Below are positions 2,301 to 64,000 of a stretch of 64,000 nt of DNA, piece by piece. Source of the stretch: Dermatophilus congolensis (GTDB lineage: Bacteria > Actinomycetota > Actinomycetes > Actinomycetales > Dermatophilaceae); assembly GCA_030538115.1 (NCBI GenBank), contig JAUNUP010000002.1:183508-247507 (forward strand). Direction: 5' to 3'. A program made the position numbers and the translations under genes. The stretch's first letter is position 1; each line of letters begins with the position of its first letter. The notes under the pieces were generated by a model, which was not told where the DNA came from, searched no databases, and was given only the letters and a program-made list of their open reading frames with translations.

Positions 2301-3883
2301 ACGGCCCTCTCGCCGGCACCGGCCACCTCATCGCCCTCCACTGGCGTGCCGGCTGGCGCGCGCTCGTGGGCTGGCCTGCGCTGATGACCCTGATAGTCGT
2401 CGCGACCGGCCGCAGCATCACCGCGCTGTACTCCGATGCGGCCGACCGGCTCTCGTACGCGCAGACGGCCGGCCTCTCCCCCGCCGCGGCGGCATTCAAC
2501 GGGCGCGGCTACGACCTGCACACGCTCGGCGGCATCACGTCGGTGGAGGTCGGCTTCATGGCGTTGCTGCTGTTCCCGGTCATCGGCATCCACCTCGCGA
2601 TCCGGTTCACACGCCGCGACGAGGAGTCCGGTCTGGCCGAACTGCTCACCTCCGCCCCCGTGGGTCGACTCGCACCCGTCGTGAGCGCGGCGCTCGCTGT
2701 CGGGGCCGGGCTCGCGCTGTACGCCGGAGCTACCACTGCGGGGCTCGTCGCCATCGGGCTCCCGTGGGAAGGGGCGGTTCTGTACTCGGCCGCATCAGCG
2801 CTGTTCACAGGCGCTTTCGTCGGCGTCGGGCTAGTGACCGCGCAACTGTGCGAGGGCTCACGAACCGCCTATGCGCTATCGCTGTCGTTCTCGCTCGCGA
2901 TGTTCCTTGTGCGGGCGGTCGTCGACGGGCGGAGCATCGACGCCGTGTGGCTCAGCCCGATGGGCTGGCTCGCGGAGGTGCGCCCCTGGGGCGACGACGC
3001 CCAGGCCTGGCCTCTCGCCAGCTTCACACTGGCCGGGCTCGCGTTGCTCGCGGCCTCCGTCGGTGTCGCCACGCGCCGAGATCTGGGTGCCGGGCTCATC
3101 GCCCCGCGGCCGGGCCCGGCCCGCGCCTCCGCCTCGCTCGGTACAGCGTTCGGGCTGGCGTGGCGGCTCACCCGCGGGATGTTCGCCGGGTGGACGACCG
3201 GTCTCGTGGCCTGGGCCGCCGCCCTCGGGATCCTTGCGAGCGAGATGACCGACATCGTCGCGGCGAACCCCGGCATCGCCGAGGCACTGGGCATCGATGC
3301 GCCCGAGCAGCTCGTCACGTCTCTCGCCGCGCTGGTCGGGGGTCTCGGACTGGGTGCGCTCGGCCTCAGCGGAGTGCAGCGGCTCGTCGCCGAGGAGGAC
3401 GCGGGGCGGCTCGGGCTACTCACGTCCACTCCTGTGAGCCGCACACGACTGTGGTCGGCGTGGGCGCTCATGCTCGCCGCGCAGGTCACAGTGGCTGGCC
3501 TGGTCGCGTCGATCACGCTCGGCGCCGCTAGTCGAATCTCCACCGGCAACGAGGCAGCGCTCGCCGACGGCGTGCGCGCGGGGATGACGTACGTGGTGCC
3601 AGTACTTTTTCTCATCGCACTGGCCTTGGCGGGGACAGCGCTCCACCGTCGACTCATCGGCCTCGCATGGGGTCTGCTCGGCTGGGCGGCAGTGGTGGCA
3701 CTCCTGGCTGAACCGCTGGACCTACCGGAATGGGCCCGCCACGCCTCGGTCTTCGACCTGGTGGGCCTCGTGCCGATCGACCCGGTGGAGACGAGCGCGA
3801 TGACGGCTCTCTGCGCGGGAGCGGTCGCGCTCGGCCTGACGGCCCTTACGACGTTCACGAGGCGGGACCTCCGAGCGGGCTGA
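2297..3883 (+). CDS. ABC-2 type exporter permease, double length
   Basis: A membrane protein of 528 residues that overlaps the ATPase stop codon by ATGA. The in-frame region upstream of 2297 is only the shadow of the ATPase gene. It contains about twelve hydrophobic segments in two halves (about 1-250 and 270-528). Each half begins with a cytoplasmic amphipathic stretch carrying R-x-E-x-x-G-x-L-x-x-L-x-x-T/S-P ([16 protein letters not shown] and [17 protein letters not shown]), so it looks like an internally duplicated ABC-2 permease. This architecture is common in actinobacterial 'polyketide antibiotic' exporters. With its ATPase it should form a homodimeric or pseudo-dimeric efflux pump. 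Confidence 0.88.
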
Positions 3884-4063
3884 CGAAGCGCCCGACGCGG
3901 AGGCACTTCCGACCGCGTGATCGAGCGGCTCAGCCAGCGGTCACGAACCGCACCATCCGGCACATTTACGCAGTTCACAGTGCGTCCACTCACGGCGGGT
4001 GGCCGCTCCGGGCACTGAATCGGCACCCCCTCAGGGAGAGACCGACTGGTGCCTCCACCGACT

Positions 4064-4152
4064 ACGTATGTACATTCGAATGCCGGACGTATGGACAATC
4101 ACCATATGATCCCTGGCTATCAAACAAGAACCGATCGTACGTATGATGAGTC
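4064..4152 (+). promoter_or_regulatory. Promoter region of the DUF222-HNH gene, leaderless-type start
   Basis: A -10-like TATGAT (4142-4147) ends 5 nt before the ATG at 4153 and no Shine-Dalgarno is present, so the mRNA probably starts at the A of the start codon. The heptamer ACGTATG occurs three times (4064, 4087, 4139), and a perfect CATTCGAATG palindrome lies around 4073-4082. No good -35 is visible. Regulation is unknown. Confidence 0.5.
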
Positions 4153-5871
4153 ATGACGATCGCGACGGACTCGATGGGCGGCTACGAGGTCGTCGGCTAT
4201 GAGTACGTCGATGGTGTGCGCCGCGAGGTGACGTACAGCGAAGACGAGGCCGATTCGTTCGGTTACGACCGTCCTGTCGATGACGAGTCGCCCATTGCCC
4301 CCTTACCTGCCGTTCCGTCGGTTCGCCTGCTCAACTCACGTACCGGTGCTGACGGCGCGGCCGCGGCGCGGCGCGCACGGCTGGCCGGGGCGAAGTCCGA
4401 ACCGCCCCGCGAACGGCTGGTCGGTACCGACTTCGACGAGCACCAGGCCGAGGTCGTCGCCAAAGTCCGTGAGGTCGCCGGCGTGCTGAACAGAGCACAC
4501 GCTGAACTCGTGGCGCTGACGGCCGACGCCCTCTCAACGGGTGTGTGGTTCGAGGCCGGCATCAAGTCGCCCGCACACTGGCTCACCTTCCGCGCCGGGC
4601 TATCGGCGGGGCGCGCCGCCCAGGTGCTCGAGGTCGCCAAGCGCCACCACGCGTTGACCGCGACGATGGGCGCCTTCACCACAGGCGATCTCTCGATGGA
4701 GCAGGTCGGCGTGATCGCCCGCAACGTTCCCGACCACTACGAGGCCGAAGTCGTCAACCTCGCCACCCACGCCACGGTGCCGCAGCTACAGCGCGCCACC
4801 CGGCACTACACCTGGGCGCCCGCCCCTGACGAGCCTGACGCCGACGCGGCAGCCTCCGACGACGCGACCATTGCCGAGACCGAGGCGAAAGAGACCGACC
4901 CCGACGCGGCCCCACCGAAGCCGCCGGTGAACCCGTTCGACCCCGCCAACGCCGCACCGTCTCTGTCGATGCGGTACACGCCCAATGGACGCTTCGTACT
5001 CCATCTCGACGCCCCCGCCCACCTCGGCGCGCTCGTCGAGTCCGCCGTGCGCGAGGCCAAAGACGCACTCTTCCACGCAATCACGCGCGGTGAGTCGGTT
5101 GCACGCGAAGCCGCCCCGGCCGCACTGACGTTCGCGGCCTTCACGCGTACTCCGACCCACGGCACCGCGCGCTCAACCCCTCCCGGGACGTTGCCTTCCC
5201 TCGCCGACGGGCTCATCGAGGTCGCACGACGCTCCCTCGACACCATCACCGCCGGATCTCGACGCGACAACCACCGCATCTACCTCCACCTCGACCTGCA
5301 CGGCTCTGGAGATACCGGCGAGCACGCGTGGTTCAACGGACACGAGAGCCTCCCCGCCCACCTCGTGCAGCGGCTCACCTGCGACGGCATCATTCAGCCT
5401 CTATGGAAGAGGGAAGGTGTTCCCGTCTCCGTCGGGCGGGCGATGCGCATCGTGCCCGCACGGACTCGCCGGTTGATCCACGACCGTGATCGCGGATGCC
5501 GGTTCCCTGGCTGTGCGTCGACGGCTCATGTCGACATCCACCACATCCAGCACTGGGCCCACGGGGGCCGCACCGACACCCCCGACCTCGTCTCACTGTG
5601 CCCGTTCCACCACGACGGACACCACCGTGGCGAGTTCACGATGCGCGGCAACGCCGACCTTCCCGAGGGCGCCCCCCGAGCCCTACGGTTCTTCACCCAC
5701 GGCGGCTTCCCACTCATGGCCACCCCGCCACCAACACCCGAAGTGGGGAGCCCTGCTGCGAACCCCGACCGGCGCCGATACGAAGGCCCCAGCGGCGACA
5801 CCCTCCACACCCACTGGGTCGACTTCGAGCCCTCGCCCCGACGTCGTCTCCACGCCGTCCCCCGCGACTGA
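4153..5871 (+). CDS. DUF222 domain protein with C-terminal HNH endonuclease motif
   Basis: A 572-residue member of the 13E12-repeat/DUF222 family, which is abundant in actinobacteria. The DUF222 helical region spans about residues 95-220 (VWFEAGIKSPAHWLTFRAGL) and is followed by an acidic, Pro/Ala-rich linker (about 225-265). The C-terminal HNH module (about 435-495) reads DRGCRFPGCASTAHVDIHHI, then HWAHGGRTDTPDLVSLCPFHH. The paired CxxxxC and HH residues bind a zinc and the His catalyses metal-dependent DNA cleavage. The biological role is unsettled: such genes often occur in many copies, sometimes at phage attachment sites. It lies alone, directly upstream of a toxin-antitoxin pair. Confidence 0.9.
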   Translation: MTIATDSMGGYEVVGYEYVDGVRREVTYSEDEADSFGYDRPVDDESPIAPLPAVPSVRLLNSRTGADGAAAARRARLAGAKSEPPRERLVGTDFDEHQAEVVAKVREVAGVLNRAHAELVALTADALSTGVWFEAGIKSPAHWLTFRAGLSAGRAAQVLEVAKRHHALTATMGAFTTGDLSMEQVGVIARNVPDHYEAEVVNLATHATVPQLQRATRHYTWAPAPDEPDADAAASDDATIAETEAKETDPDAAPPKPPVNPFDPANAAPSLSMRYTPNGRFVLHLDAPAHLGALVESAVREAKDALFHAITRGESVAREAAPAALTFAAFTRTPTHGTARSTPPGTLPSLADGLIEVARRSLDTITAGSRRDNHRIYLHLDLHGSGDTGEHAWFNGHESLPAHLVQRLTCDGIIQPLWKREGVPVSVGRAMRIVPARTRRLIHDRDRGCRFPGCASTAHVDIHHIQHWAHGGRTDTPDLVSLCPFHHDGHHRGEFTMRGNADLPEGAPRALRFFTHGGFPLMATPPPTPEVGSPAANPDRRRYEGPSGDTLHTHWVDFEPSPRRRLHAVPRD

Positions 5872-7697: not shown

Positions 7698-7760
7698 GCA
7701 CGCGAAACTACCGCAGAGCCTGGCCGGTCGAGTGAGCACGTCGTCTCACCCGACCGGCAC

Positions 7761-7884
7761 GGGTGCAGCGACACATGTTCTCGCTCATCTCGCCTTGCCC
7801 CGCCAGTGCCGCTGCACGGGGGCAAGGACGGGCCCCGAACCCAGTGCCATCAGTGCCGCTGCACGGAGCGACGTACCGTGCAGC
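7761..7884. repeat. Dispersed palindrome element, copy A, plus a 9-bp-stem hairpin
   Basis: Left arm GTGCAGCGACAC (7762-7773) and right arm GTGCCGCTGCAC (7806-7817) are inverted and pair at 11 of 12 positions. They enclose a body sharing ACATGTTCTCGC and ATCTC with copies near 57.8 and 63.8 kb. A second right-arm copy (7853-7864) overlaps a hairpin of 9-bp arms GCTGCACGG (7858-7866) and CCGTGCAGC (7876-7884). The element fills the gap between prpE and the PLP-enzyme gene; nothing here looks coding. Confidence 0.75.
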
Positions 7885-32864: not shown

Positions 32865-32937
32865 GGATGTACTCCCAAACGTCGATCGAGGTGCGGTCGC
32901 CCCATCCTTCCATGCGCTGCGTGCACACACCTAAACG

Positions 32938-32993
32938 CGCGAAACCCGGAGTCTCAGCCCCCCTGGTAGGGGCCGGAAACTCCGGGTTTCGCG
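32938..32993 (-). terminator. Terminator downstream of tsf
   Basis: Perfect 15-bp arms CGCGAAACCCGGAGT (32938-32952) and ACTCCGGGTTTCGCG (32979-32993) lie 17 nt past the tsf stop. The loop contains a smaller CCCC/GGGG stem. In the tsf direction it is followed by GCGTTTAGG, a weak U-tract. The hairpin splits tsf from pyrH. Confidence 0.75.
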
Positions 32994-33010
32994 TTGTTCA
33001 GCGCGAAGGG

Positions 33011-33838
33011 TCAGGCGCCCACGCGGAAGCGGGCGAAGCTCTGCGCCTCGACGCCGGCCTCGGCGAGCACGGCCTTGACCAGCTTCTTCTGGTCCTTGGC
33101 GTACTTCTGGTCGAGGAGCACGTTCTCGGCGAAGAAGCCGTTGACGCGGCCTTCGACGATCTTCGGGAGGGCGGCCTCGGGCTTGCCCTCCTCACGCGCG
33201 GTCTCCTCGGCGAGACGACGCTCGGTGGCGACCGTCTCCTCGTCGATCTCGTCGCGGGTCAGCGCGGTCGGCGAGAAGGCCGCGACGTGCATCGCGACGT
33301 CGCGAGCCACGGCCGCGTCGGAGCCGGAGTAGGCGAACAGCACGCCGATCTGCGGGGGCAGGTCGGGGCTGGTCTTGTGCAGGTAGGCCAGCACGTTCTC
33401 GCCCTCGATGCGGGCCACGCGACGGACCTCCATCTTCTCGCCCGTGGCGGCAGCCGTGTTGTCGATGAGCGACTGCACGGTCTCACCGTTCGCGTCAGCC
33501 GCCATGAGGGCCTCGACGTCGGTGGCGCCGGAGGCGACCGCAGCGGCGAGCACGGTGTCGGCCAGTGCGATGAACTTGTCACCCTTGGCGACGAAGTCGG
33601 TCTCGCAGTTGACCTCGACCATCGTGCCGACGTTGCCGTCGACCTGGGCAGCGACGAGGCCGTTGGAGGCCGAGCGGCCCTCACGCTTCGTGATGCCCTT
33701 GAGGCCCTTGACGCGCAGGAGCTCTGCCGCCTTCACCTTGTCGCCGTCGGCCTCGTCGAGGGCCTTCTTGACATCGAGCATGCCCGCGCCGGTCTGCTCG
33801 CGGACTTCCTTGATGTCGGCCGTCGTGTAGTTAGCCAT
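33011..33838 (-). CDS. tsf: Translation elongation factor Ts
   Basis: A 275-residue EF-Ts, the guanine-nucleotide exchange factor for EF-Tu. The N-terminal UBA-like domain ANYTTADIKEVREQTGAGML-DVKKALDEADGD is followed by the signature GLVAAQVDGNVGTMVEVNCETDFVAK and the dimerisation core. It follows rpsB on the same strand with a 99-bp spacer containing a strong hairpin. Length and content are standard. Confidence 0.97.
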   Translation of the reverse strand: MANYTTADIKEVREQTGAGMLDVKKALDEADGDKVKAAELLRVKGLKGITKREGRSASNGLVAAQVDGNVGTMVEVNCETDFVAKGDKFIALADTVLAAAVASGATDVEALMAADANGETVQSLIDNTAAATGEKMEVRRVARIEGENVLAYLHKTSPDLPPQIGVLFAYSGSDAAVARDVAMHVAAFSPTALTRDEIDEETVATERRLAEETAREEGKPEAALPKIVEGRVNGFFAENVLLDQKYAKDQKKLVKAVLAEAGVEAQSFARFRVGA

Positions 33839-54340: not shown

Positions 54341-54424
54341 CCAACGATGTATTCGGCGGCTGCCGCACGCGTTTTCGCCTGCGAGCCAGCGCCATCCGCT
54401 CTACCGAGTCCCCCAGGAGGGCCC

Positions 54425-57400
54425 GTGACCGCGACCGAGACCACCCCCACCGATCAGGCAGCTCCGACCGCCAACCACGTGCGGATCGTCACTGCGGCAA
54501 GCCTGTTCGACGGACACGACGCCTCGATCAACATCATGCGGCGGATCATGCAGGCCCAGGGCTGCGAGGTGATCCACCTCGGGCACAACCGCTCGGTCGC
54601 CGAGGTGCTGCGCGCCGCGATCCAGGAGGACGTGCACGGCATCGCCGTCAGCTCGTACCAGGGCGGGCACGTCGAGTACTTCAAGTACCTCGTGGATGAG
54701 CTCAAGGCCAACGGAGTGGGCCACGTCAAGGTCGTCGGTGGCGGCGGCGGCGTCATCGTGCCCGACGAGATCGCCGACCTGCGTAACTCGGGCGTGACGA
54801 TCTTCTCCCCCGAAGACGGGCAGCGCCTCGGCCTGGCCGGGATGATCGGGCAGGTCGTCGACTCCTGCGACTCCGACCTATGGGAGCTCGGCGCACCTGC
54901 CCTCGACGACGTGCTGGCCGGCGACGAGGCCGCTGTGGCGCGGGCGATCACCGGCGCTGAGCTGGGGCTGCTCGACCCCGACCTGCACGCGGGCATCATG
55001 GCGGCTGCCTCGCGCTCGAACGCGCCCGTGCTCGGCATCACCGGCACCGGCGGCTCCGGCAAGTCCAGCCTCACCGACGAGCTCGTACGCCGCCTGCGCC
55101 TCGACCAGTCAGATCGGCTGCGCGTGGCCGTGCTCGCCGTCGACCCTACCCGCAGCCGCACCAAGGGCGCGCTGCTCGGCGACCGCATCCGCATGTCGTC
55201 GCTCGACAGCGACCGCGTCTTCTTCCGCTCGCTGGCCACCCGCGGCCACGACCAGGTGCCCGACCACCTCACCGACGTCATCGAGGTCGTCAAGGCCGCC
55301 GGGTTCGACCTGATCATCCTCGAGACCCCCGGCATCGGACAGGGCGACGGCGCCGTCACCCAGTACTCCGACGTGTCGCTGTACGTGATGACCCCCGAGT
55401 TCGGGGCGAGCAGCCAGCTCGAGAAGATCGACATGCTCGACCTCGCCGACGTGGTCGCGATCAACAAGTTCGAGCGCCGCGGAGCCGAAGACGCACTGCG
55501 CGACGTGGGCCGCCAGATGGTGCGCAACCGCGAGGCGTTCGGTTCGGGCCCCGAGGACATGCCGGTCTTCGGCACCTCCGCCGCCACGTTCAACGACGAC
55601 GGCGTCACCGCGCTCTACCAGGAGCTCCGCCGCCTGCTCGGCGAGAAGGGCATGCCCGTCGGCGAGTGCGAACTGCCCGAGGTGCACACCCGCAAGTCGA
55701 CCAAGATCGCCACGGTCGTGCCCGCCACCCGCGTGCGCTACCTCGCCGAGATCAGCGAGACCGTGCGCGGCTACCACGCCGACACCCGCGACTACGCCGC
55801 CAAGGCCGTGCGGGCGCAGCGCCTCGACGCGGTGCGCGGCGAGCTGGCCGAGATCGGCGCCTCGACCTCCGATGTGGAGGGGCTGCTCGCCAAGGCCCGC
55901 AACGACCTGCCCGGCGAGGTGCACGACCTGCTGGAGCGGTGGCCGTCGGTGGTCGAGTCGTACTCCGGTGACGTGCAGGTCGTGAAGGTGCGCGACCGTG
56001 AGCTGCGCACGCAGCTCACCCGTAAGTCGCTGTCGGGCAACGTGATCCCGCGCGTGGCCCTGCCCCGCTACACCGACCACGGCGAGCTCGTCAGCTTCTT
56101 GCGCCGCGAGAACCTGCCCGGCTACTTCCCGTTCACTGCGGGCGTGTTCCCGTTCAAGCGCGAGGGCGAAGACCCGGCACGCATGTTCGCCGGCGAAGGC
56201 GACCCGTTCCGCACGAACCGCCGGTTCAAGATGCTCTCCGCCGACGGCGAGGCCACCCGCCTCTCCACTGCGTTCGACTCCGTGACGCTGTACGGCCGCG
56301 ACCCCGACCCGCGCCCCGACGTGTACGGCAAGGTCGGCACCTCCGGCGTCTCGGTGGCGACGCTCGACGACATGAAGGCGCTGTACGACGGGTTCGACCT
56401 GGTCAGCCCCACGACCTCCGTGTCGATGACGATCAACGGCCCCGCGCCGACGATCCTCGCGTTCTTCCTCAACACCGCCATCGACCAGCAGCTCGACGCG
56501 TTCCGCGAGCGCGAGGGCCGTGCACCGAACGCCGAGGAGGCGGCCGGGCTGCGCGCCCACGCCCTCGCCAACGTGCGCGGCACCGTGCAGGCCGACATCC
56601 TCAAGGAGGACCAGGGTCAGAACACGTGCATCTTCTCCACGGAGTTCTCGCTGCGGATGATGGGCGACATCCAGCAGTGGTTCATCGACAACTTGGTGCG
56701 CAACTTCTACTCGGTCTCGATCTCCGGGTACCACATCGCGGAGGCCGGGGCGAACCCCATCAGCCAGCTCGCGTTCACCCTGGCGAACGGGTTCACGTAC
56801 GTCGAGAGCTACCTCGCGCGCGGCATGCACATCGACGACTTCGCGCCCAACCTGTCGTTCTTCTTCAGCAACGGCATGGACCCGGAGTACTCGGTGCTCG
56901 GCCGCGTGGCCCGACGCATCTGGGCCGTGGCGATGCGCGACAAGTACGGCGCCGCCGAGCGTTCGCAGAAGCTCAAGTACCACGTGCAGACCTCGGGCCG
57001 CAGCCTGCACGCGCAGGAGATGGACTTCAACGACATCCGCACGACCCTGCAGGCGCTCATCGCGATCTACGACAACGCCAACTCCCTGCACACCAACGCA
57101 TACGACGAGGCCATCACGACCCCGACGGAGGAGTCGGTGCGGCGGGCGCTCGCGATCCAGCTCATCATCAACCGCGAGTGGGGCATGGCGATGAACGAGA
57201 ACCCCAACCAGGGCTCGTTCCTCATCGACGAGCTGACCGACCTGGTCGAAGAGGCCGTGCTCGTCGAGTTCGACCGCATCACCGAGCGCGGCGGCGTGCT
57301 CGGCGCGATGGAAACGGGCTACCAGCGAGGCCGGATCCAGGACGAGTCGATGCTCTACGAACACCGCAAGCACGACGGGTCGCTGCCGATCATCGGCGTG

Positions 57401-57676
57401 AACACCTTCCGCAACCCGAAGGCCGACGGCGAGCCGGTCACGGTCGAATTGGCGCGCGCGACGGAGGCGGAGAAGGAAAGCCAGCTGAGCCGAGTGCGCG
57501 CGTTCAAGGCGGCGAACGAGAGCGCGGCTGAGGAAGCCCTGGCGAACCTGAAGGCAGCCGCGATAGCGGGAGACAACGTCTTCGAGGTGTTGATGGACGC
57601 GGCCCGCGTCTGCTCCCTGCAGCAGGTCACGGAGGCGTTCTTCGAAGTAGGAGGCCAGTACCGCAGAAACGTGTGA
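54425..57676 (+). CDS. icmF: Fused isobutyryl-CoA mutase (B12 domain, MeaI GTPase, mutase barrel)
   Basis: A 1083-residue IcmF. It has an N-terminal adenosylcobalamin-binding domain with base-off motif SLFDGHDASINI (His31) and GGGGGVIVPDEI. A G-protein chaperone domain follows, with P-loop GTGGSGKSSL (about residue 206) and switch region LETPGIGQGDGAV. The C-terminal mutase TIM barrel (about 530-1083) includes RDPDPRPDVYGKVGTSGVSV, DILKEDQGQNTCIFSTEFSL and HVQTSGRSLHAQEMDFNDIR. Order and length match IcmF, which interconverts isobutyryl-CoA and n-butyryl-CoA (some also pivalyl-CoA), not methylmalonyl-CoA mutase. GTG 54425 is chosen because AGGAGG lies 4 nt upstream. The divergent MarR probably controls it. 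Confidence 0.94.
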   Translation: MTATETTPTDQAAPTANHVRIVTAASLFDGHDASINIMRRIMQAQGCEVIHLGHNRSVAEVLRAAIQEDVHGIAVSSYQGGHVEYFKYLVDELKANGVGHVKVVGGGGGVIVPDEIADLRNSGVTIFSPEDGQRLGLAGMIGQVVDSCDSDLWELGAPALDDVLAGDEAAVARAITGAELGLLDPDLHAGIMAAASRSNAPVLGITGTGGSGKSSLTDELVRRLRLDQSDRLRVAVLAVDPTRSRTKGALLGDRIRMSSLDSDRVFFRSLATRGHDQVPDHLTDVIEVVKAAGFDLIILETPGIGQGDGAVTQYSDVSLYVMTPEFGASSQLEKIDMLDLADVVAINKFERRGAEDALRDVGRQMVRNREAFGSGPEDMPVFGTSAATFNDDGVTALYQELRRLLGEKGMPVGECELPEVHTRKSTKIATVVPATRVRYLAEISETVRGYHADTRDYAAKAVRAQRLDAVRGELAEIGASTSDVEGLLAKARNDLPGEVHDLLERWPSVVESYSGDVQVVKVRDRELRTQLTRKSLSGNVIPRVALPRYTDHGELVSFLRRENLPGYFPFTAGVFPFKREGEDPARMFAGEGDPFRTNRRFKMLSADGEATRLSTAFDSVTLYGRDPDPRPDVYGKVGTSGVSVATLDDMKALYDGFDLVSPTTSVSMTINGPAPTILAFFLNTAIDQQLDAFREREGRAPNAEEAAGLRAHALANVRGTVQADILKEDQGQNTCIFSTEFSLRMMGDIQQWFIDNLVRNFYSVSISGYHIAEAGANPISQLAFTLANGFTYVESYLARGMHIDDFAPNLSFFFSNGMDPEYSVLGRVARRIWAVAMRDKYGAAERSQKLKYHVQTSGRSLHAQEMDFNDIRTTLQALIAIYDNANSLHTNAYDEAITTPTEESVRRALAIQLIINREWGMAMNENPNQGSFLIDELTDLVEEAVLVEFDRITERGGVLGAMETGYQRGRIQDESMLYEHRKHDGSLPIIGVNTFRNPKADGEPVTVELARATEAEKESQLSRVRAFKAANESAAEEALANLKAAAIAGDNVFEVLMDAARVCSLQQVTEAFFEVGGQYRRNV

Positions 57677-57682
57677 GCTGCG

Positions 57683-57714
57683 AGAGCCCGCGTGCCACGG
57701 CACTTCCGGGCTCT
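57683..57714 (+). terminator. Terminator-like hairpin after icmF enclosing a core palindrome
   Basis: Arms AGAGCCCG (57683-57690) and CGGGCTCT (57707-57714) enclose GTGCCACGGCAC (57692-57703). The stem starts 7 nt past the icmF stop, so the core palindrome of the dispersed repeat family forms its apical part. Confidence 0.65.
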
Positions 57715-57729
57715 GGTGACAAGAAGGAC

Positions 57730-57776
57730 TTCATGTGCCGTGGCACCCCAACCGGTGGGGTGCCACGGCACATGAA
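57730..57776. repeat. 21-bp-arm perfect inverted repeat built on the core palindrome
   Basis: Positions 57730-57750 are exactly reverse-complementary to 57756-57776, leaving a 5-nt loop ACCGG. Each arm contains the core GTGCCGTGGCAC / GTGCCACGGCAC and an ATG/CAT shoulder. It lies in the convergent gap between icmF and the GNAT gene, with no U-tract. Confidence 0.85.
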
Positions 57777-57802
57777 CGTCTTCGAGGTCACGTCATCACA
57801 TC

Positions 57803-57929
57803 GGTGCCGCGGCACATGTTCTCCGCCCCCGCCCCTCCCAGCACGAGTGCCAGGGCACGGTAGGGACCACTCCGTCCCATGGCACAGGTGCAGAAAGGCG
57901 CCGTGATGCTGTGACATGTGCCATGGGAC
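57803..57929. repeat. Dispersed palindrome element, copy B, plus a 13-bp-arm inverted repeat
   Basis: Copy B (57803-57860) has left core GTGCCGCGGCAC, body start ACATGTTCTC and right core GTGCCAGGGCAC, aligned in length with the 63.8-kb copy. Beyond it GTCCCATGGCACA (57874-57886) and TGTGCCATGGGAC (57917-57929) are a perfect 13-bp inverted repeat. The whole gap 57677-57960 holds only these structures. Confidence 0.75.
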
Positions 57930-57960
57930 CCCCAACGAAAGGGCGACATGCCACACGGAC

Positions 57961-58947
57961 TCAGCTCGGGGCTGTCGCTCCTGCTGCTACCGCGTCCAGG
58001 GCCACGCGCACCGCGCCTTCCTCATCGCGCACCGCAGTGACCGGCCAGAAGCGGGCACCTCTCGTCTCGACTCCGTGCGACGCGGCCTGCGCCAGGACTC
58101 GCGCGATGTCGGCCGCCGGTCGGGAGGTGAGCACCACCGCTCCCGACACCGCGTCTTCGATGCGGAGCGCGAGTTCGTGCGCCCCGGCCTCCGTGACGTG
58201 ACCTGCGGGTTCGAGGTCGCGGACGAGCGGGACCCCGAGCTCCAGGGCCAACCTCCGACCGCGGGCGACCAGTTCGTGCACCGGCGCCCCCACCGCCACC
58301 GCCTCGGAGGCGAGCAGCACCACCAGCGGCCGCGTCACCTGACCCCGGCGCGACACGGCCTGGTACGGCGCGGCGGGCCACTCCTCGCGGGTCACGCCGT
58401 AGACGACGTGGTCGCGCCACGCCTCCACTGCGTCGGCGTCCCCCAGCCACAGGTACCGGGGCCAGGCCCCGCGTCGTGTGAACCCGAGCCGCCGCAACAC
58501 CCCCGCGGAGGCGGTATTGCCCGGCTGCACGCACGCCTCGAGCCGGTGCAGCCCGAGCCCGTGCGGCGACGGGGAGAACGCGAGTTGCACCACGAGCCTC
58601 AGCCCTTCGGTGAACAGCCCTTCACCCGCATACGGGTCGTAGCTGTCGTACCCGAGGGTCGCGGAGAGTGCCCTCCCCCGCTGGATCCCCGTGACGTTCA
58701 CCTTGCCGACGATGTCGTGCGCCCCCTCCGGGTGCAGGGCGCGGATGAGAAACGTGCGGTGCCGGTCGGATTGGTTGCGCAGGTGATGTCCGAGGTCTTT
58801 GGGGTCGACGGGATTCCACGGCTTGAGCCGCTCCCGAGACCCTTCGACGGCCAGCGCGTACGGCGCGAGGTCGTCGGTCGTCGGTGTGTGTACGCGAACC
58901 CGCTCGCCGATGCGCTCCCAGCCCGCCTCAGGCGACAACGAGACCAT
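57961..58947 (-). CDS. RimJ/RimL-type GNAT acetyltransferase with extra C-terminal domain
   Basis: A 328-residue protein. Residues about 15-190 are a RimJ/RimL-like GNAT fold (RERLKPWNPVDPKDLGHHLR; acetyl-CoA region LFTEGLRLVVQLAF; RLEACVQPGNTASAGVLRRL; GFTRRGAW). Residues about 200-328 form an additional alpha/beta region (RPLVVLLASEAVAVGAPVHE; PVTAVRDEEGAVRVALDAVA) that I do not recognise. The target amine is unknown. The ATG at 58947 lies inside the end of the amidohydrolase gene (20-bp overlap on the same strand), so translation is probably coupled. No Shine-Dalgarno is evident. Confidence 0.75.
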   Translation of the reverse strand: MVSLSPEAGWERIGERVRVHTPTTDDLAPYALAVEGSRERLKPWNPVDPKDLGHHLRNQSDRHRTFLIRALHPEGAHDIVGKVNVTGIQRGRALSATLGYDSYDPYAGEGLFTEGLRLVVQLAFSPSPHGLGLHRLEACVQPGNTASAGVLRRLGFTRRGAWPRYLWLGDADAVEAWRDHVVYGVTREEWPAAPYQAVSRRGQVTRPLVVLLASEAVAVGAPVHELVARGRRLALELGVPLVRDLEPAGHVTEAGAHELALRIEDAVSGAVVLTSRPAADIARVLAQAASHGVETRGARFWPVTAVRDEEGAVRVALDAVAAGATAPS

Positions 58948-60013
58948 TGAGCACGATGTTCGAGGGTGTGGCCAGCAGCGACAGGTCATCGAACGGGTTG
59001 CCGCTCGCGACAACGAGATCCGCAGGCGCGCCTTCTTCAATCCCCGGTCGGCGCAGCCACTCCCGAGCCCGCCACGTCGCAGCCGAGATCGCCTCGACCG
59101 TAGTCATGCCCGCCTTGGTCAACTCGGCCATCTCCTCGGCGACGAGCCCGTGCGGGATGACGCCGCCGGCGTCGGTACCCACGAAGATCGGCACGCCGGC
59201 GTCGTGGGCTGCGCCGATGGTGTTGTAGCGGCGTTCGTACAGGTCACGCATGTGGGCGGCGTAGCCGGGGAACTTGGCCTCGCCCGCCTCCGCGATGTTC
59301 GGAAACGTGAGGATGTTGACGAGCGTGGGCACGATCGCGATGCCCTTGGCGGCGAAGACCTCGACGGTCTCCTCGGTGAGCCCGGTGGCGTGCTCGATGC
59401 AGTCGGTGCCCGCCTCCGCGAAGTCTGCGAGCGACTGTTCACCGAAGCAGTGGGCGGTGACTCGTGCCCCCTCTTCGTGCGCCGCGGCGATGGCGGCGGT
59501 GAGCGCCTCCACGGGCCAGCACGGAGCGAGATCGCCCACGTCACGGTGGATCCAGTCGCCGACGAGCTTCACCCATCCGTCTCCGCGGCGCGCCTCGTGA
59601 CGCACGTACTCGACGAGGTCTTCGGGCTCGATCTCGTGCCCGTAGTTGCGGATGTACCGCTTCGTGCGCGCGATGTGGCGGCCGGCTCTGATGATCTCGG
59701 GCATGTCGTCACGCTCTTGCAAGAACCGCGTGTCGAGCGCGGATCCGGCGTCGCGGATGAGCAGGGTGCCGGCGTCACGGTCGGTCGTCGCCTGCGCGAT
59801 CGCTTCCTCGGCCTCAATGGCTCCGCCGGGCCCCATGCCGACGTGACAGTGCGCATCGACGAACCCGGGCAGCGCGTACCCCTGCACCGTCTGTACATCC
59901 CCGGAGGTGGGTGGCGTGAACGTGAACCGCCCCCCGACGACCCAGACCTCAGGCCGGATGTCGTCAGCCGAGACGAACACCTGCCCCTTCACGTGCAACA
60001 CGGGCGCGCTCAT
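58928..60013 (-). CDS. Imidazolonepropionase-like metal-dependent amidohydrolase
   Basis: A 361-residue cytoplasmic amidohydrolase. The metal site is readable: HxH in GFVDAHCHVGMG (about 68-79), a likely carboxylated Lys in DGWVKLVGDWIH, His in ARVTAHCFGEQ and in CIEHATGL, and Asp in FVGTDAGGVIPH. The small beta domain from both termini (SAPVLHVKGQVFVS and NPFDDLSLLATPSNIVLNGL) is typical. Related proteins hydrolyse cyclic amides, Xaa-Pro/Arg dipeptides or ochratoxin-like amides; no specific substrate can be named. ATG 60013 begins the family sequence. It is followed by the overlapping GNAT gene. Confidence 0.85.
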   Translation of the reverse strand: MSAPVLHVKGQVFVSADDIRPEVWVVGGRFTFTPPTSGDVQTVQGYALPGFVDAHCHVGMGPGGAIEAEEAIAQATTDRDAGTLLIRDAGSALDTRFLQERDDMPEIIRAGRHIARTKRYIRNYGHEIEPEDLVEYVRHEARRGDGWVKLVGDWIHRDVGDLAPCWPVEALTAAIAAAHEEGARVTAHCFGEQSLADFAEAGTDCIEHATGLTEETVEVFAAKGIAIVPTLVNILTFPNIAEAGEAKFPGYAAHMRDLYERRYNTIGAAHDAGVPIFVGTDAGGVIPHGLVAEEMAELTKAGMTTVEAISAATWRAREWLRRPGIEEGAPADLVVASGNPFDDLSLLATPSNIVLNGLVVA

Positions 60014-60257
60014 ACAACCCGAGCGTAGCGGCAGAGTCGTCACGGATGACTCCAGGGCCTCCGCCACGATTGCTAACGCGGACCTGTGGATAGCCGAGAT
60101 TCAGGCAATGAGGTCACAGCAGCGCTCTAGCGTTACGGTGCCGCATCGTTCACCTGTCTGCGTTCACGCTTGTGGAGATGACGAAACCCCGGCGATGTGG
60201 CTGTGAGCCAGGGATCGTTCCGGGGTCTTCGCCATTCACCGTAGTGCAGGAGCGGAC

Positions 60258-60914
60258 ATGAAATCAACGCCGATCGACTACGTGAGATTGCGAGAACTCC
60301 TTTCTGCGGAACGCCTGGGGTCATACCTGCGGGCAACCGACGATGATCTCGTGCGGACTTTCGCGCTGTACGAGTGGAACATCGATGCCTCCGCGGCGGC
60401 GTTGTCGCTCACCGCGATCGTAGAGGTGGTCGTGCGAAATGCCCTCGACACGCAGATGCAGGCCTGGGCGGGCCGTCGAAGCGGTGGCGACTGGATGGAC
60501 ATGGCGCCGCTTGACGACCGCGGCCAAGCCGATATTCGCAAGGCAAGGGCCAGGGCATCGCGAGGGGGCCGACAGGCTACTCACGGACACGTGGTGGCGG
60601 AATTGAGCCTGGGTTTCTGGCGCTACCTCGTCAGCCGCCGCTATTACACGTCACTCTGGGTTCCCGGTCTTCGATACGCATTCCCAGGCATGGCCGGGCA
60701 GGCAGAGCAACAGAGGCGCTCGATCGAGAGCGACCTGCAGCAGCTACTCTTTCTCCGGAATCGGGCGGCACACCACGAGCCCATCCACCGACGCGACCTC
60801 GATGCAGACCTCGCCCGCGCCATCGAACTACTCGGCTGCGTGGATCCGACAGCCGCGGCCTGGGCGAGCAACCGCGAGATGCTGTCGGTCGTCATCGCTC
60901 GGCGGCCGACCTAG
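60258..60914 (+). CDS. Abi-like HEPN-domain protein (possible abortive-infection RNase)
   Basis: A 218-residue all-helical protein of the Abi_2/AbiD-F type. The family start DYVRLRELLSAERLGSYLRA is followed by YEWNIDASAAALSLTAIVEV, VVRNALDTQM and SLGFWRYLVS. The C-terminus has FLRNRAAHHEPIHRRDLDAD, where Arg167-x4-His172 is the HEPN ribonuclease motif. Such proteins halt translation or cut RNA when phage infects; no test in this host is implied. AGGAG lies 5 nt before the ATG. It is on the opposite strand to its neighbours, and its stop overlaps the stop of an orphan antitoxin gene by 4 bp. Confidence 0.75.
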   Translation: MKSTPIDYVRLRELLSAERLGSYLRATDDDLVRTFALYEWNIDASAAALSLTAIVEVVVRNALDTQMQAWAGRRSGGDWMDMAPLDDRGQADIRKARARASRGGRQATHGHVVAELSLGFWRYLVSRRYYTSLWVPGLRYAFPGMAGQAEQQRRSIESDLQQLLFLRNRAAHHEPIHRRDLDADLARAIELLGCVDPTAAAWASNREMLSVVIARRPT

Positions 60915-61177
60915 AAGGAGCGCTGACGGGAAGCGACGTGGAACTCTGCCACCGTCGCGGGCTCATCTTCGGGGATCTCAAGGTCGAGTCGACCGTACTC
61001 CCGCCCGGCGTTCATCAACTGCTCGATCCACGTCCGGTCTGCCCTGCCGGAAGCAGTCAGCGCGTCGACGAGGATCGCGCGCGCCTCGGCCTCCATCGAC
61101 GTGCCCCGAGCTGCAGCGCGCAGACGCAAGCGCTGCTCCGTGGCCTCCGGAAGGTTGAGGATCGTGATCTCAGGCAT
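60911..61177 (-). CDS. FitA-like antitoxin without a cognate PIN toxin
   Basis: An 88-residue protein whose N-terminus PEITILNLPEATEQRLRLRA, AARGTSMEAEARAILVDAL is the FitA/StbC-type ribbon-helix-helix antitoxin pattern. The tail TWIEQLMNAGREYGRLDLEI would bind a toxin. In the usual arrangement a PIN toxin gene follows immediately, but here the next downstream sequence is the opposite-strand Abi-like gene. It is either an orphan remnant or works with something else. Its start ATG is at 61177. Confidence 0.8.
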   Translation of the reverse strand: MPEITILNLPEATEQRLRLRAAARGTSMEAEARAILVDALTASGRADRTWIEQLMNAGREYGRLDLEIPEDEPATVAEFHVASRQRSF

Positions 61178-61337
61178 GGAGCAATGATGTCAATGCAACA
61201 GCCAAGTGTCGTCCATGGATCGGGCTGCCGGCGCGACGGCTTCCGGCTCGACGCTTGTCCGCCACTTGGCCGCGCTGCGTACTTGTCCGTGTCGTCTTCC
61301 GGTTGCGGGGCTTGCCCTCTGTGAGCAGGGTGGATTC

Positions 61338-61775
61338 ATGACCTTCGGCAACGAAACCCCCAGCATCGACACCGGCGGCGGCCTTGAGAACGTCGACGGC
61401 CCTGGCATCGACGACGTCGAGGCCGGCACGGCAGAGGCCGAGCGCGAGGTCCGCATCGACTCCGAGGAAGGTGACGACCTTCCGGTGACCCCGCCGGAGA
61501 TGCAACCGCGCACTGGCGCATCTCTGGCGTCCGACGACTTCCCCGCCCCGGAGTCGATCGAACAGCGAATCATGCAGGAGGAGCCCGACCCCGACTCCGC
61601 CTACGGCGCGCCCGACGACGAAGGCGGTTTGGAGGCCGAGGCACGCTCCGGCGGTGACGACCCCGACGCGATCCCCGCCGACCAGGATTTCGTCGGCGGC
61701 GGCGAGAACACGAACCTCGTCTTCGACGGCCCGGCCGAGGAAGCAGCGATGAGGCTCACCGAGCCGGAAGTCTGA
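61338..61775 (+). CDS. DUF5709-like acidic protein
   Basis: A 145-residue, strongly acidic protein (many D, E and G, few K). The middle segment ESIEQRIMQEEPDPDSAYGA, then PDDEGGLEAEARSGGDD, and the end FDGPAEEAAMRLTEPE match the pattern of the actinobacterial DUF5709 family, whose role is unknown. No signal peptide, membrane segment or catalytic motif is seen. ATG 61338 has GCAGGGTGG upstream. A G/C-rich imperfect hairpin (CCTTCGGC ... GCCGAAAGG, about 61839-61859) follows at 65 bp and may end the transcript. Confidence 0.75.
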   Translation: MTFGNETPSIDTGGGLENVDGPGIDDVEAGTAEAEREVRIDSEEGDDLPVTPPEMQPRTGASLASDDFPAPESIEQRIMQEEPDPDSAYGAPDDEGGLEAEARSGGDDPDAIPADQDFVGGGENTNLVFDGPAEEAAMRLTEPEV

Positions 61776-61785
61776 TCCGACGAAG

Positions 61786-61968
61786 AGGCGCGGTCGCGGG
61801 AGTCAATCTCCCCAGGCGGCCACACAGACCCGAGGGCGCCTTCGGCCCCCGCCGAAAGGGCTCCTCGTCTGCGGTTAGGCGCGGTCGCGGGTGTCGGCTC
61901 CCACCGATCGTGTGGCGCGGCGCTGGGGCTGGTAGCCGAGTGTCCGCGATAAGAGCGTGCCGCGGCAC
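61786..61968. repeat. Short repeats between the DUF5709 gene and ffh
   Basis: AGGCGCGGTCGCGGG occurs twice in direct orientation (61786-61800, 61877-61891). The perfect core palindrome GTGCCGCGGCAC of the dispersed repeat family lies at 61957-61968, 14 bp past the ffh stop on the minus strand. No gene is visible in this 206-bp gap. Confidence 0.6.
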
Positions 61969-61981
61969 AGTCCCCCGGCGC

Positions 61982-63655
61982 CTACTTGAGGAAGTCTCCG
62001 AAGTTTTTCGGGAGTTTGTTCGGGTCGAAGTCCTTCATGAGGTCTTCCGCGCTCGGCTGGCCCTTGCCGCCGAAGGCTCCGCCCAGGCCGCCCTTGGGCT
62101 TCGTGCCCTCGTCGCCGGATGCTCCGCCTCCGAAGGCCGCCTCGATGGCTGCCTGACGGGCAGCCTCGCGCTTCGCGGCCAGGTCCTTCTCCTGCTGCGC
62201 GCGCTTCGCCGGGTTGCCCGACTTGCCCTTGATCGGCTTCTGCTTCTTCTTCGCAGCCGCTGCCCCACCTCCGGGCATACCCGGCATTCCCGGCATCCCG
62301 GGCATTCCGCCGCGGCGGATCTGGCGCATCATCTTCTGCGCCTGACCGAACCGCTCCAGCAGCCCGTTGACCTCGGAGACCGTGACGCCCGAACCCTTCG
62401 CGATACGCGCGCGGCGCGAGCCGTTGATCTGCTTCGGGTGGTTGCGCTCGAACGGGGTCATCGAGCGGACCATCGCCTCGACCCGGTCGAACTCCCGCTC
62501 GTCGAGGTTGTCGAGCTGGTCGCGCATCTGGTTCATGCCGGGCATCATCCCGAGCAGGCTCTTGAGCGAGCCCATCTTGCGGATGCCGGCCATCTGCTGC
62601 AGGAAGTCGTCGAACGTGAAGTCTTCGTCTTCGACGAACTTGCGCGCCATCTCGTTGGTCTGGCGCTCGTCGAAGGCCCGCTGCGCCTGCTCGATGAGCG
62701 TGAGCACGTCACCCATGTCGAGGATGCGCGAGGCCATGCGGTCGGGGTGGAAGACCTCGAAGTCCTTCACCTGCTCGCCGGTGGAGGCGAACATGATCGG
62801 GCGGCCCGTGAGGTACCGGATCGACAGGGCTGCACCACCGCGGGCGTCACCGTCGAGCTTGGTGAGCACGACACCGGTGTAGTCGACACCCTCGAGGAAC
62901 GCCTGCGCGGTCTCGACGGCGGCCTGACCGATCATCGCGTCGACGACGAACAGCACCTCGTCGGGGTTCACCGCGTCGCGGATGTCGCGGGCCTGCTGCA
63001 TCAGCTCGGTGTCGATGGCGAGACGGCCGGCGGTGTCGACGATGACGACGTCGCGCTGGTCACGCTGCGCCTGCTCGACACCCTGCCGGGCCACGACCAC
63101 GGGGTCACCGTATCCGCGTGTACCCGTACCGAATTCGACGGCCGCGTCGTACCCGGCCACGTTGCCCCGCTCGGGAGCGAACACGGGCACGCCCGCCCGC
63201 TCACCGACAACCTCGAGCTGCGTCACCGCGTTCGGGCGCTGGAGGTCGGCCGCCACGAGCATCGGCGTGTGCCCCTGCTGCTTGAGCCAGTACGCGAGCT
63301 TGCCCGCGAGGGTCGTCTTACCCGAACCCTGCAGACCCGCGAGCATGATCACCGTCGGAGGGCGCTTGGCGAATTCGATCGTGCGGGTCTCGCCGCCGAG
63401 GATGCCGATGAGCTCGTCGTGCACGATCTGCACGACCTGCTGCCCCGGGTTGAGCGCCTGGTTCACCTCCACCGCGAGCGCCCGCTCCCGAACGGAGCTG
63501 GTGAACGCACGCACGACGGGCAGGGCCACGTCGGCGTCGAGCAGCGCGATGCGGATGTCGCGGATGGTGGAGTTGACGTCCTTCTCGGACACGCGCCCAC
63601 GCCCGCGCAGGTTCTTGAACGTGTCGGTCAAGCGATCCGAGAGTGAGTTGAACAC
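61982..63655 (-). CDS. ffh: Signal recognition particle protein Ffh
   Basis: A 557-residue SRP54 GTPase. The N/G domains start FNSLSDRLTDTFKNLRGRGR and contain P-loop LAGLQGSGKTTLAGKLA (about 101-117), DTAGRLAID and TKLDGDARGGAAL. The methionine-rich M domain (about 320-440; MAGIRKMGSLKSLLGMMPGM) binds signal sequences and 4.5S RNA. The Gly/Pro/Met repeat (GGMPGMPGMPGMPGGG) and a Lys/Ala tail after about residue 450 lengthen it beyond the usual 450-520. It delivers nascent membrane proteins to FtsY. It opens the minus-strand backbone chain. The DNA upstream is full of palindromic repeats. Confidence 0.96.
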   Translation of the reverse strand: MFNSLSDRLTDTFKNLRGRGRVSEKDVNSTIRDIRIALLDADVALPVVRAFTSSVRERALAVEVNQALNPGQQVVQIVHDELIGILGGETRTIEFAKRPPTVIMLAGLQGSGKTTLAGKLAYWLKQQGHTPMLVAADLQRPNAVTQLEVVGERAGVPVFAPERGNVAGYDAAVEFGTGTRGYGDPVVVARQGVEQAQRDQRDVVIVDTAGRLAIDTELMQQARDIRDAVNPDEVLFVVDAMIGQAAVETAQAFLEGVDYTGVVLTKLDGDARGGAALSIRYLTGRPIMFASTGEQVKDFEVFHPDRMASRILDMGDVLTLIEQAQRAFDERQTNEMARKFVEDEDFTFDDFLQQMAGIRKMGSLKSLLGMMPGMNQMRDQLDNLDEREFDRVEAMVRSMTPFERNHPKQINGSRRARIAKGSGVTVSEVNGLLERFGQAQKMMRQIRRGGMPGMPGMPGMPGGGAAAAKKKQKPIKGKSGNPAKRAQQEKDLAAKREAARQAAIEAAFGGGASGDEGTKPKGGLGGAFGGKGQPSAEDLMKDFDPNKLPKNFGDFLK

Positions 63656-64000
63656 CGGACCAGGCTACTCGACCCGCGCAAAGCCGCCGAAACCGTCAAC
63701 GGGAGACACGGAGCCTGCCCGACGCACCCGTGCCGCGGCACTGCTGCTGGAAGGTGACGCGTGGGAGGTCATATGCCACGGCACCTTCATCCGGGGTGGT
63801 GCCGTGGCACATGTTCTCGCGCATCTCACCTCCCAGCAGCAGTGCCACGGCACGGAGCTGGGGTCGGGTCTGCGGACGCCCTTCCCCGCGCCTCTGAAGC
63901 AGAAGTGCCACGGCACGAGAAGGCGGGCCCCGCCTTCGGCAGGCTCGGAGCCTGCCCGACGCACCCGTGCCGCGGCACTGCTGCTGGAAGGTGACGCGTG
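63656..64000. repeat. Repeat array upstream of ffh (copies C', C and start of a 237-bp repeat)
   Basis: No gene is visible here. Core palindromes lie at 63730-63741, 63773-63784 (first base diverged), 63799-63810, 63842-63853, 63905-63916 and 63967-63978. Unit C (63798-63855) and unit C' (63728-63785, minus orientation) are inverted copies of the same 58-bp element sharing CAGCAGCAGTGCC and CACCT. Bases 63709-63763 are repeated exactly at 63946-64000, so a 237-bp period repeat begins and continues beyond the window. Confidence 0.85.

What the first reader, a model, noticed from the sequence alone, without database searches (positions are those of the whole stretch)
63656..64000. Dispersed 58-bp palindrome-bounded element, dense array upstream of ffh
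Element C (63798-63855) is bounded by GTGCCGTGGCAC and GTGCCACGGCAC, which are reverse complements of each other. C' (63728-63785) is the same element in the opposite orientation, back to back. Homologous units occur at 7761-7819 and 57803-57860 with the same length (58-59 bp) and shared ACATGTTCTC body start. Between copies A and C the arms changed in a compensatory way: pair 5 is A-T in A and C-G in C; pair 7 is C-G in A and T-A in C. This suggests selection for a folded or symmetric structure. It resembles REP/BIME families in role and placement but I know no described family with this core.
Basis: seen in the sequence. Interest (0 to 1): 0.85.

Follow-up and report, generated by a model that had tools for sequence, protein, structure and literature searches.

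The report
Hairpin-paired intergenic repeat in an actinobacterium
Between genes in the DNA of an unnamed actinobacterium lies a repeat of about 58 bases whose two ends are complementary to each other and which, in back-to-back pairs, is predicted to fold into very long hairpins; searches of related genomes did not find it, and it likely works like the scattered hairpin repeats (REP/BIME) described mainly from other bacterial groups.

Summary
Three intergenic clusters carry one family: seven units of 12-bp arm, 31-32-nt spacer, 12-bp arm, arms near GTGCCRYGGCAC, spacer starting ATG. GTGCCGCGGCAC and GTGCCACGGCAC are the window's two most over-represented 12-mers; GTGCC-NN-GGCAC occurs 11 times against 0.32 expected. 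A model trained on two clusters recognises the third. Arm-to-arm pairing covaries; self-pairing of each arm does not. Head-to-head pairs are predicted to fold into very stable hairpins. Exact pairs: 0 of 186 family genomes and 1 of 396 order-level genomes, unrelated; nothing convincing in 800 kb of two close genomes. It works like a REP/BIME family but is not filed as one: no GTAG or CGTC tag adjoining as those families require, and the REP transposase family was found in 0 of 23 and 4 of 186 relatives. It is not a typical MITE: no target duplication. Most likely a lineage-specific REP-like hairpin family, predicted to shape transcript ends. The source genome is not held, so copy number and any transposase could not be tested.

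The parts
63799..63853 (+). unit C (U5): 12-bp arm, 31-nt spacer, 12-bp arm; arms 12/12 complementary
63730..63784 (-). unit C' (U4), head to head with C; arms 10/12 complementary
63728..63855 (.). C'/C dimer; predicted to fold as one hairpin, -101.6 (+) and -106.2 (-) kcal/mol, z -12.9 and -13.4
63905..63916 (.). single palindrome GTGCCACGGCAC in the array
63946..64000 (.). second copy, 237 bp on, of 63709-63763 (55 of 55 identical), cut by the window end; holds GTGCCGCGGCAC at 63967-63978
57692..57746 (-). unit U1; arms 12/12
57760..57815 (+). unit U2, head to head with U1; arms 11/12; shares arm 57804-57815 with the next unit
57719..57787 (.). U1/U2 head-to-head junction hairpin, -49.8 and -49.7 kcal/mol, between convergent genes; flagged terminator-like on the - strand
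57804..57858 (+). unit B (U2b); arms 10/12
57874..57929 (-). unit U3; arms 12/12, with C-G for G-C at pair 3
7763..7817 (+). unit A (U9); arms 11/12
7853..7864 (.). extra near-palindrome GTGCCGCTGCAC beside unit A, in a hairpin 3' of the acetyl-CoA synthetase gene that folds no better than shuffles (z 0.01)
61912..61968 (.). possible decayed unit 3' of ffh (14.7 bits, E 0.094, not significant); ends in GTGCCGCGGCAC
61982..63655 (-). ffh (SRP54) gene, whose 5' side faces the C cluster

Best explanation
This is a dispersed intergenic repeat of about 58 bp whose two 12-bp ends are complementary to each other across a 31-32-nt spacer, and it likely acts as a REP/BIME-like hairpin element that ends or protects transcripts between genes. 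Shown: three clusters, a fixed 12-31/32-12 architecture, arm-to-arm covariation, head-to-head dimers complementary over up to 58 positions, intergenic placement (one cluster between convergent genes), no find in the related genomes searched. Inferred: that the hairpins form in RNA and terminate transcription or block 3' exonucleases; that the family spread within this one lineage as a non-autonomous repeat. The enzyme that spread it is unknown.
For: Top two over-represented 12-mers of the window, and top palindromic half-site of those with at least 5 sites, 11 against 0.32. Held-out recognition of 7 of 7 units above all 2,977,312 background positions of 110 loci. Arm pairing: 95.2% of cells paired (2 of 500 shuffles as high), 4 pairs changed on both sides (8 of 500), covariation score reached by 1 of 500, while self-pairing of each arm is at shuffle level; true arm partners match better than permuted ones (60 of 5040 permutations as good; 8 of 720 without the unit that shares an arm). 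Hairpins: z -12.9 and -13.4 for C'/C, -8.7 and -9.2 for U1/U2, -5.5 and -2.8 for C alone, -4.0 for U3 (one strand folded). Cluster B lies between the end of the mutase gene (+) and of the acetyltransferase reading frame (-); A lies 3' of the acetyl-CoA synthetase gene; C lies 5' of ffh. Lineage restriction: 0 of 186, 1 unrelated of 396.
Against: Only three clusters in 64 kb, and no genome to count in. The number of further pair types is not above shuffles (87 of 500), and the structure was read from these same seven sequences. Unit A alone does not fold better than shuffles (z -0.48 and -1.36). Terminator role: in 56000-64000 the scan flagged, of this family, only the U1/U2 hairpin (two rows); it takes loops of 3-8 nt only, and its 5 hits are near the 3.2 expected. 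Of 6 mismatches in the seven arm pairs, 5 are A.C on the + strand, so G.U on the - strand, and 1 is G.G, a hint of RNA-level pairing; but in the long C'/C hairpin such mismatches split 4 to 3, so RNA versus DNA is open. Inverted 12-mer pairs as such are not enriched in the window.
Confidence: 0.6

Rival explanations
1. [quoted passage not shown]
For: Fixed length, inverted ends, scattered intergenic copies.
Against: No flanking direct repeat of 3 bp or more at any of 7 units, 2-bp matches at 2 of 7; units occur in head-to-head dimers and two share an arm, unlike single insertions.
Confidence: 0.2
2. A REPIN mobilised by a REP-associated tyrosine transposase (RAYT) of the source genome.
For: Doublet palindromes that pair into one hairpin resemble REPIN anatomy (REPIN anatomy recalled and from a search listing).
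Against: Y1_Tnp found in 0 of the 23 genomes first tested and 4 of 186 family genomes; no GTAG on the 5' side of any of 7 units.
Confidence: 0.1
3. An array of operator sites: each 12-bp palindrome binds a dimeric DNA-binding or chromosome-organising protein.
For: Each arm is itself nearly palindromic, apparently solitary copies exist (61957, 63905), and start-to-start spacings of 43-44 recur.
Against: Self-palindromy is what breaks in units A and U3 while arm-to-arm pairing is kept at 11 and 12 of 12; spacers share ATG and other positions.
Confidence: 0.12
4. Ordinary gene-end hairpins (terminators) that look alike through local duplication and quasi-palindrome correction, not a dispersed family.
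For: Palindromes of other sequence lie in the same intergenic spaces (63918-63957, 7724-7757); a segment is duplicated 237 bp on; inverted pairs are common in such GC-rich DNA.
Against: Homologous spacers and the same architecture at places 6 and 50 kb apart.
Confidence: 0.15

Closest known systems
REP / BIME (GTAG super-family; PMC3733652 passages, PMC2817692 search listing)
   Same: Short intergenic palindromes, alternating orientation, head-to-head dimers with hairpin potential.
   Different: The unit is two 12-bp near-palindromes joined by a 31-32-nt spacer; no 5' GTAG tag. A passage of PMC3733652 names Proteobacteria, Cyanobacteria and Chloroflexi for GTAG repeats, and the word Actinobacteria does not occur in its main text.
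CGTC-tagged palindromic repeats (PMC3733652, passages)
   Same: Palindromic repeats reported without a dedicated transposase, often as dimers.
   Different: No CGTC directly at the ends of the 7 units; one lies 5 nt away from an arm of C'. The paper names five phyla, Actinobacteria not among them.
REPIN (PMC3116915, search listing only)
   Same: Two palindromes in inverted order forming one hairpin.
   Different: No Y1 transposase in 23 relatives first tested, 4 of 186 in the family.
Stem-loop sequence families of Mycobacterium and Corynebacterium, MIRU (PMC2267715, passages)
   Same: Stem-loop repeat clusters are already counted in actinobacteria (table row seen).
   Different: Their sequences were not compared here.
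MITE
   Same: Inverted ends, dispersed, no protein assigned.
   Different: No target duplication, dimers and a shared arm.

Membership tests
REP/BIME (GTAG) | GTAG-type tag at the 5' foot of the hairpin | tested here: not met
   12-nt flanks of 7 units: GTAG near 1 of 7 (57860-57863), on its 3' side.
REP/BIME (GTAG) | High copy number, more than 100 per genome (abstract of PMC2817692, listing) | not testable with these tools
   No whole genome held for the window.
REP/BIME (GTAG) | Intergenic, alternating orientation | tested here: met
   Clusters A, B and C lie outside the Pfam-supported reading frames; orders -,+,+,- in B and -,+ in C; cluster A has a single full unit.
REPIN/RAYT | A Y1 (RAYT) transposase in the genome | tested here: inconclusive
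   Only relatives could be searched: 0 of 23, 4 of 186.
CGTC repeats | CGTC at one end | tested here: not met
   None directly adjoining the 7 units; in the 12-nt flanks one CGTC, 5 nt from the 3' arm of C'.
MITE | Terminal inverted repeats | tested here: met
   Arms 10-12 of 12 complementary in 7 of 7 units.
MITE | Target-site duplication | tested here: not met
   0 of 7 units with 3 bp or more; 2 of 7 with 2 bp.
CRISPR | Near-identical repeats of 21 bp or more with unrelated spacers (recalled) | tested here: not met
   12-bp varying arms, and spacers that align with each other.
Known RNA family | Match to an Rfam model | tested here: not met
   0 matches in the window at gathering threshold.

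The most novel reading that the evidence does not exclude
A new class of bacterial interspersed hairpin repeat in Actinobacteria: a doublet in which two near-palindromic ends are kept complementary to each other rather than to themselves, amplified within one lineage by a mechanism that does not use a RAYT.
Probability: 0.3. Interest if true: 0.6.

Novelty: new variant of a known kind. Interest (0 to 1): 0.42.

Why it matters
Interspersed palindromes of the REP type are best described outside Actinobacteria and are tied to RAYT transposases. A lineage-restricted family in a group where that transposase family is rare (4 of 186 genomes) would ask what else can spread and keep hairpin repeats, and would give natural hairpin signals for testing transcript ends in GC-rich bacteria.

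Tried and rejected
Self-palindrome as the conserved feature: at shuffle level. A loose search of relatives' loci for arm families: the window's 6 is matched or exceeded by 3 other loci; of the ones printed I read only L045 further, a real palindromic tandem array; the others look like coding GC-rich words and were not checked one by one. Related elements with other arms in 400 kb each of G028 and G043: of the over-represented 12-mers I inspected one per genome; neither shows this architecture. Covariance-model search of 11 genomes: 0 of 11, but the tool scored only 150 of 2835-4941 first-look candidates in each, so it says little. GTGCCNNGGCACNTG in 186 genomes: 134 have a match, with counts that by eye are no larger than those of the reversed-pattern control. 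The exact pair patterns would, read against the window, detect 4 of its 7 units (not U3, C' or A), so diverged copies can be missed. The 80 ffh loci: single GTGCCNNGGCAC sites in 5 of 80, none with two; longest inverted repeats 5' of ffh in 48 of the 80 loci were of other sequence or short (two of them without an upstream gene found); the genes 5' of ffh in the four loci looked at (L001, L002, L003, L008) differ or have no Pfam match. A rough gene caller missed known genes and its intergenic fraction is not used. Papers: the listings of searches showed no such family described in this group, one search returned nothing, and the two 12-mers occur in no held paper; PMC3733652, PMC2267715 and PMC6006769 were seen as passages, the others as search listings only.

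Full report
What is there. The window (68% GC) comes from an actinobacterium near Agilicoccus, Kineosphaera, Mobilicoccus, Piscicoccus and Austwickia: these give the best named matches of its Ffh (75-79% in the best segment); that they belong to the Dermatophilaceae is recalled. Among 186 held family genomes the closest by Ffh are two unnamed 2.6-Mb genomes (G027, G028) at 86%, the rest 82% or below (listed rows). No whole genome is held for the window itself.

The repeat. Seven units have a 12-bp arm, a 31- or 32-nt spacer and a second 12-bp arm: 7763-7817, 57692-57746, 57760-57815, 57804-57858, 57874-57929, 63730-63784 and 63799-63853; five of the seven have at most one arm mismatch, the other two have two. 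In a common orientation all seven spacers begin with ATG, and 20 of 56 columns are invariant. A count of all 12-mers puts GTGCCGCGGCAC (4 sites, 8 when both strands are counted, 0.09 expected) and GTGCCACGGCAC (6 sites in either orientation, 0.05 expected) first and second in the window, and the half-site GTGCC first among 5-2-5 palindromes with at least 5 sites, 11 against 0.32. A position model trained on two clusters scores every unit of the third above all 2,977,312 positions (both strands) of 110 loci from other genomes, 7 of 7; the weakest, 57874-57929, does so narrowly (21.5 against 19.7 there and 20.6 elsewhere on the + strand of the window). Inverted 12-mer pairs in general are not enriched in the window, and loosely similar arm families as large as 6 to 9 turn up in 3 other loci: what is special is the one sequence and architecture, not inverted pairs as such.

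Structure. The arms of the seven units complement each other at 10 to 12 of 12 positions (12, 10, 11, 10, 12, 11, 12). In the alignment four pairs show changes on both sides, 95.2% of cells pair, and the covariation score is reached by 1 of 500 shuffles; the number of further pair types is not exceptional (87 of 500). Pairing of each arm with itself is at shuffle level. Two units make the point: 57874-57929 has C-G where the others have G-C at pair 3, and 7763-7817 has A-T where the others have C-G at pair 5; both break the arm's own palindrome and keep the pairing between arms there. Limits: seven sequences, two sharing an arm, and a structure read from these same sequences. C and C' together are predicted to fold as one hairpin in either strand (-101.6 and -106.2 kcal/mol; 0 of 200 shuffles as stable), and the U1/U2 junction at -49.8 and -49.7. 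C alone and U3 fold better than shuffles; unit A alone does not.

Placement. Cluster B fills the space between a mutase gene ending at 57676 (+) and an acetyltransferase reading frame ending at 57961 (-): a convergent gap. Cluster A lies between the end of an acetyl-CoA synthetase gene (7927, -) and the start of a serine-dehydratase-like reading frame (7739, -). Cluster C lies 5' of ffh (61982-63655, -); the next gene is beyond the window. The C cluster continues: 63709-63763 recurs unchanged at 63946-64000.

Distribution. Exact pairs were found in 0 of 186 family genomes and 1 of 396 order-level genomes, that one reading as an unrelated tandem repeat; the two sets overlap, and the patterns fit only 4 of the 7 window units. 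The covariance model finds nothing convincing in 800 kb of G028 and G043 (4 matches at E up to 1, best 19.5 bits, E 0.055; in the window it lists 6 of the 7 units that it was built from, at 61-74 bits). No match in the phage and plasmid collections for 63660-64000, in viral contigs for two patterns, or in Rfam.

What it works like, and membership. It looks like a REP/BIME-type hairpin family in anatomy and place. It lacks the GTAG tag on the 5' side and a CGTC at its ends, and the Y1 transposase family was found in 0 of the 23 genomes first tested and in 4 of 186. It has MITE-like ends but no target duplication. So it is described as REP-like and not filed as a member. The function proposed, hairpins at transcript ends, is inferred from place and predicted folding; the terminator scan supports it weakly (5 hits against 3.2 expected, two of them the U1/U2 hairpin). 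The means of spread is unknown.

Noticed in passing
window 63918-63957: Two tight palindromes of other sequence (GAAGGCGGGCCCCGCCTTC and GGCAGGCTCGGAGCCTGCC) inside the same intergenic array; the left half of the second is missing at the upstream copy near 63709.
   Followed up: partly
window 32938-32993: Strong inverted repeat below a minus-strand reading frame that ends at 33011; 32925-33015 folds at -57.8 kcal/mol on the minus strand; unrelated sequence, likely a terminator.
   Followed up: partly
window 7724-7757: Hairpin GCCGGTCG...CGACCGGC directly beside unit A.
   Followed up: partly
L045 5270-5545: Tandem array of about 50-bp units around CCCCGCACGTGCGGG in a MAG labelled Intrasporangiaceae: another palindromic repeat in a relative, of different sequence.
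   Followed up: partly
window 54347-57676: One 1109-aa reading frame joins B12-binding, MeaB and mutase domains (IcmF-like, name recalled); in 20 related genomes matches cover it in separate pieces, the best at 41% identity.
   Followed up: partly
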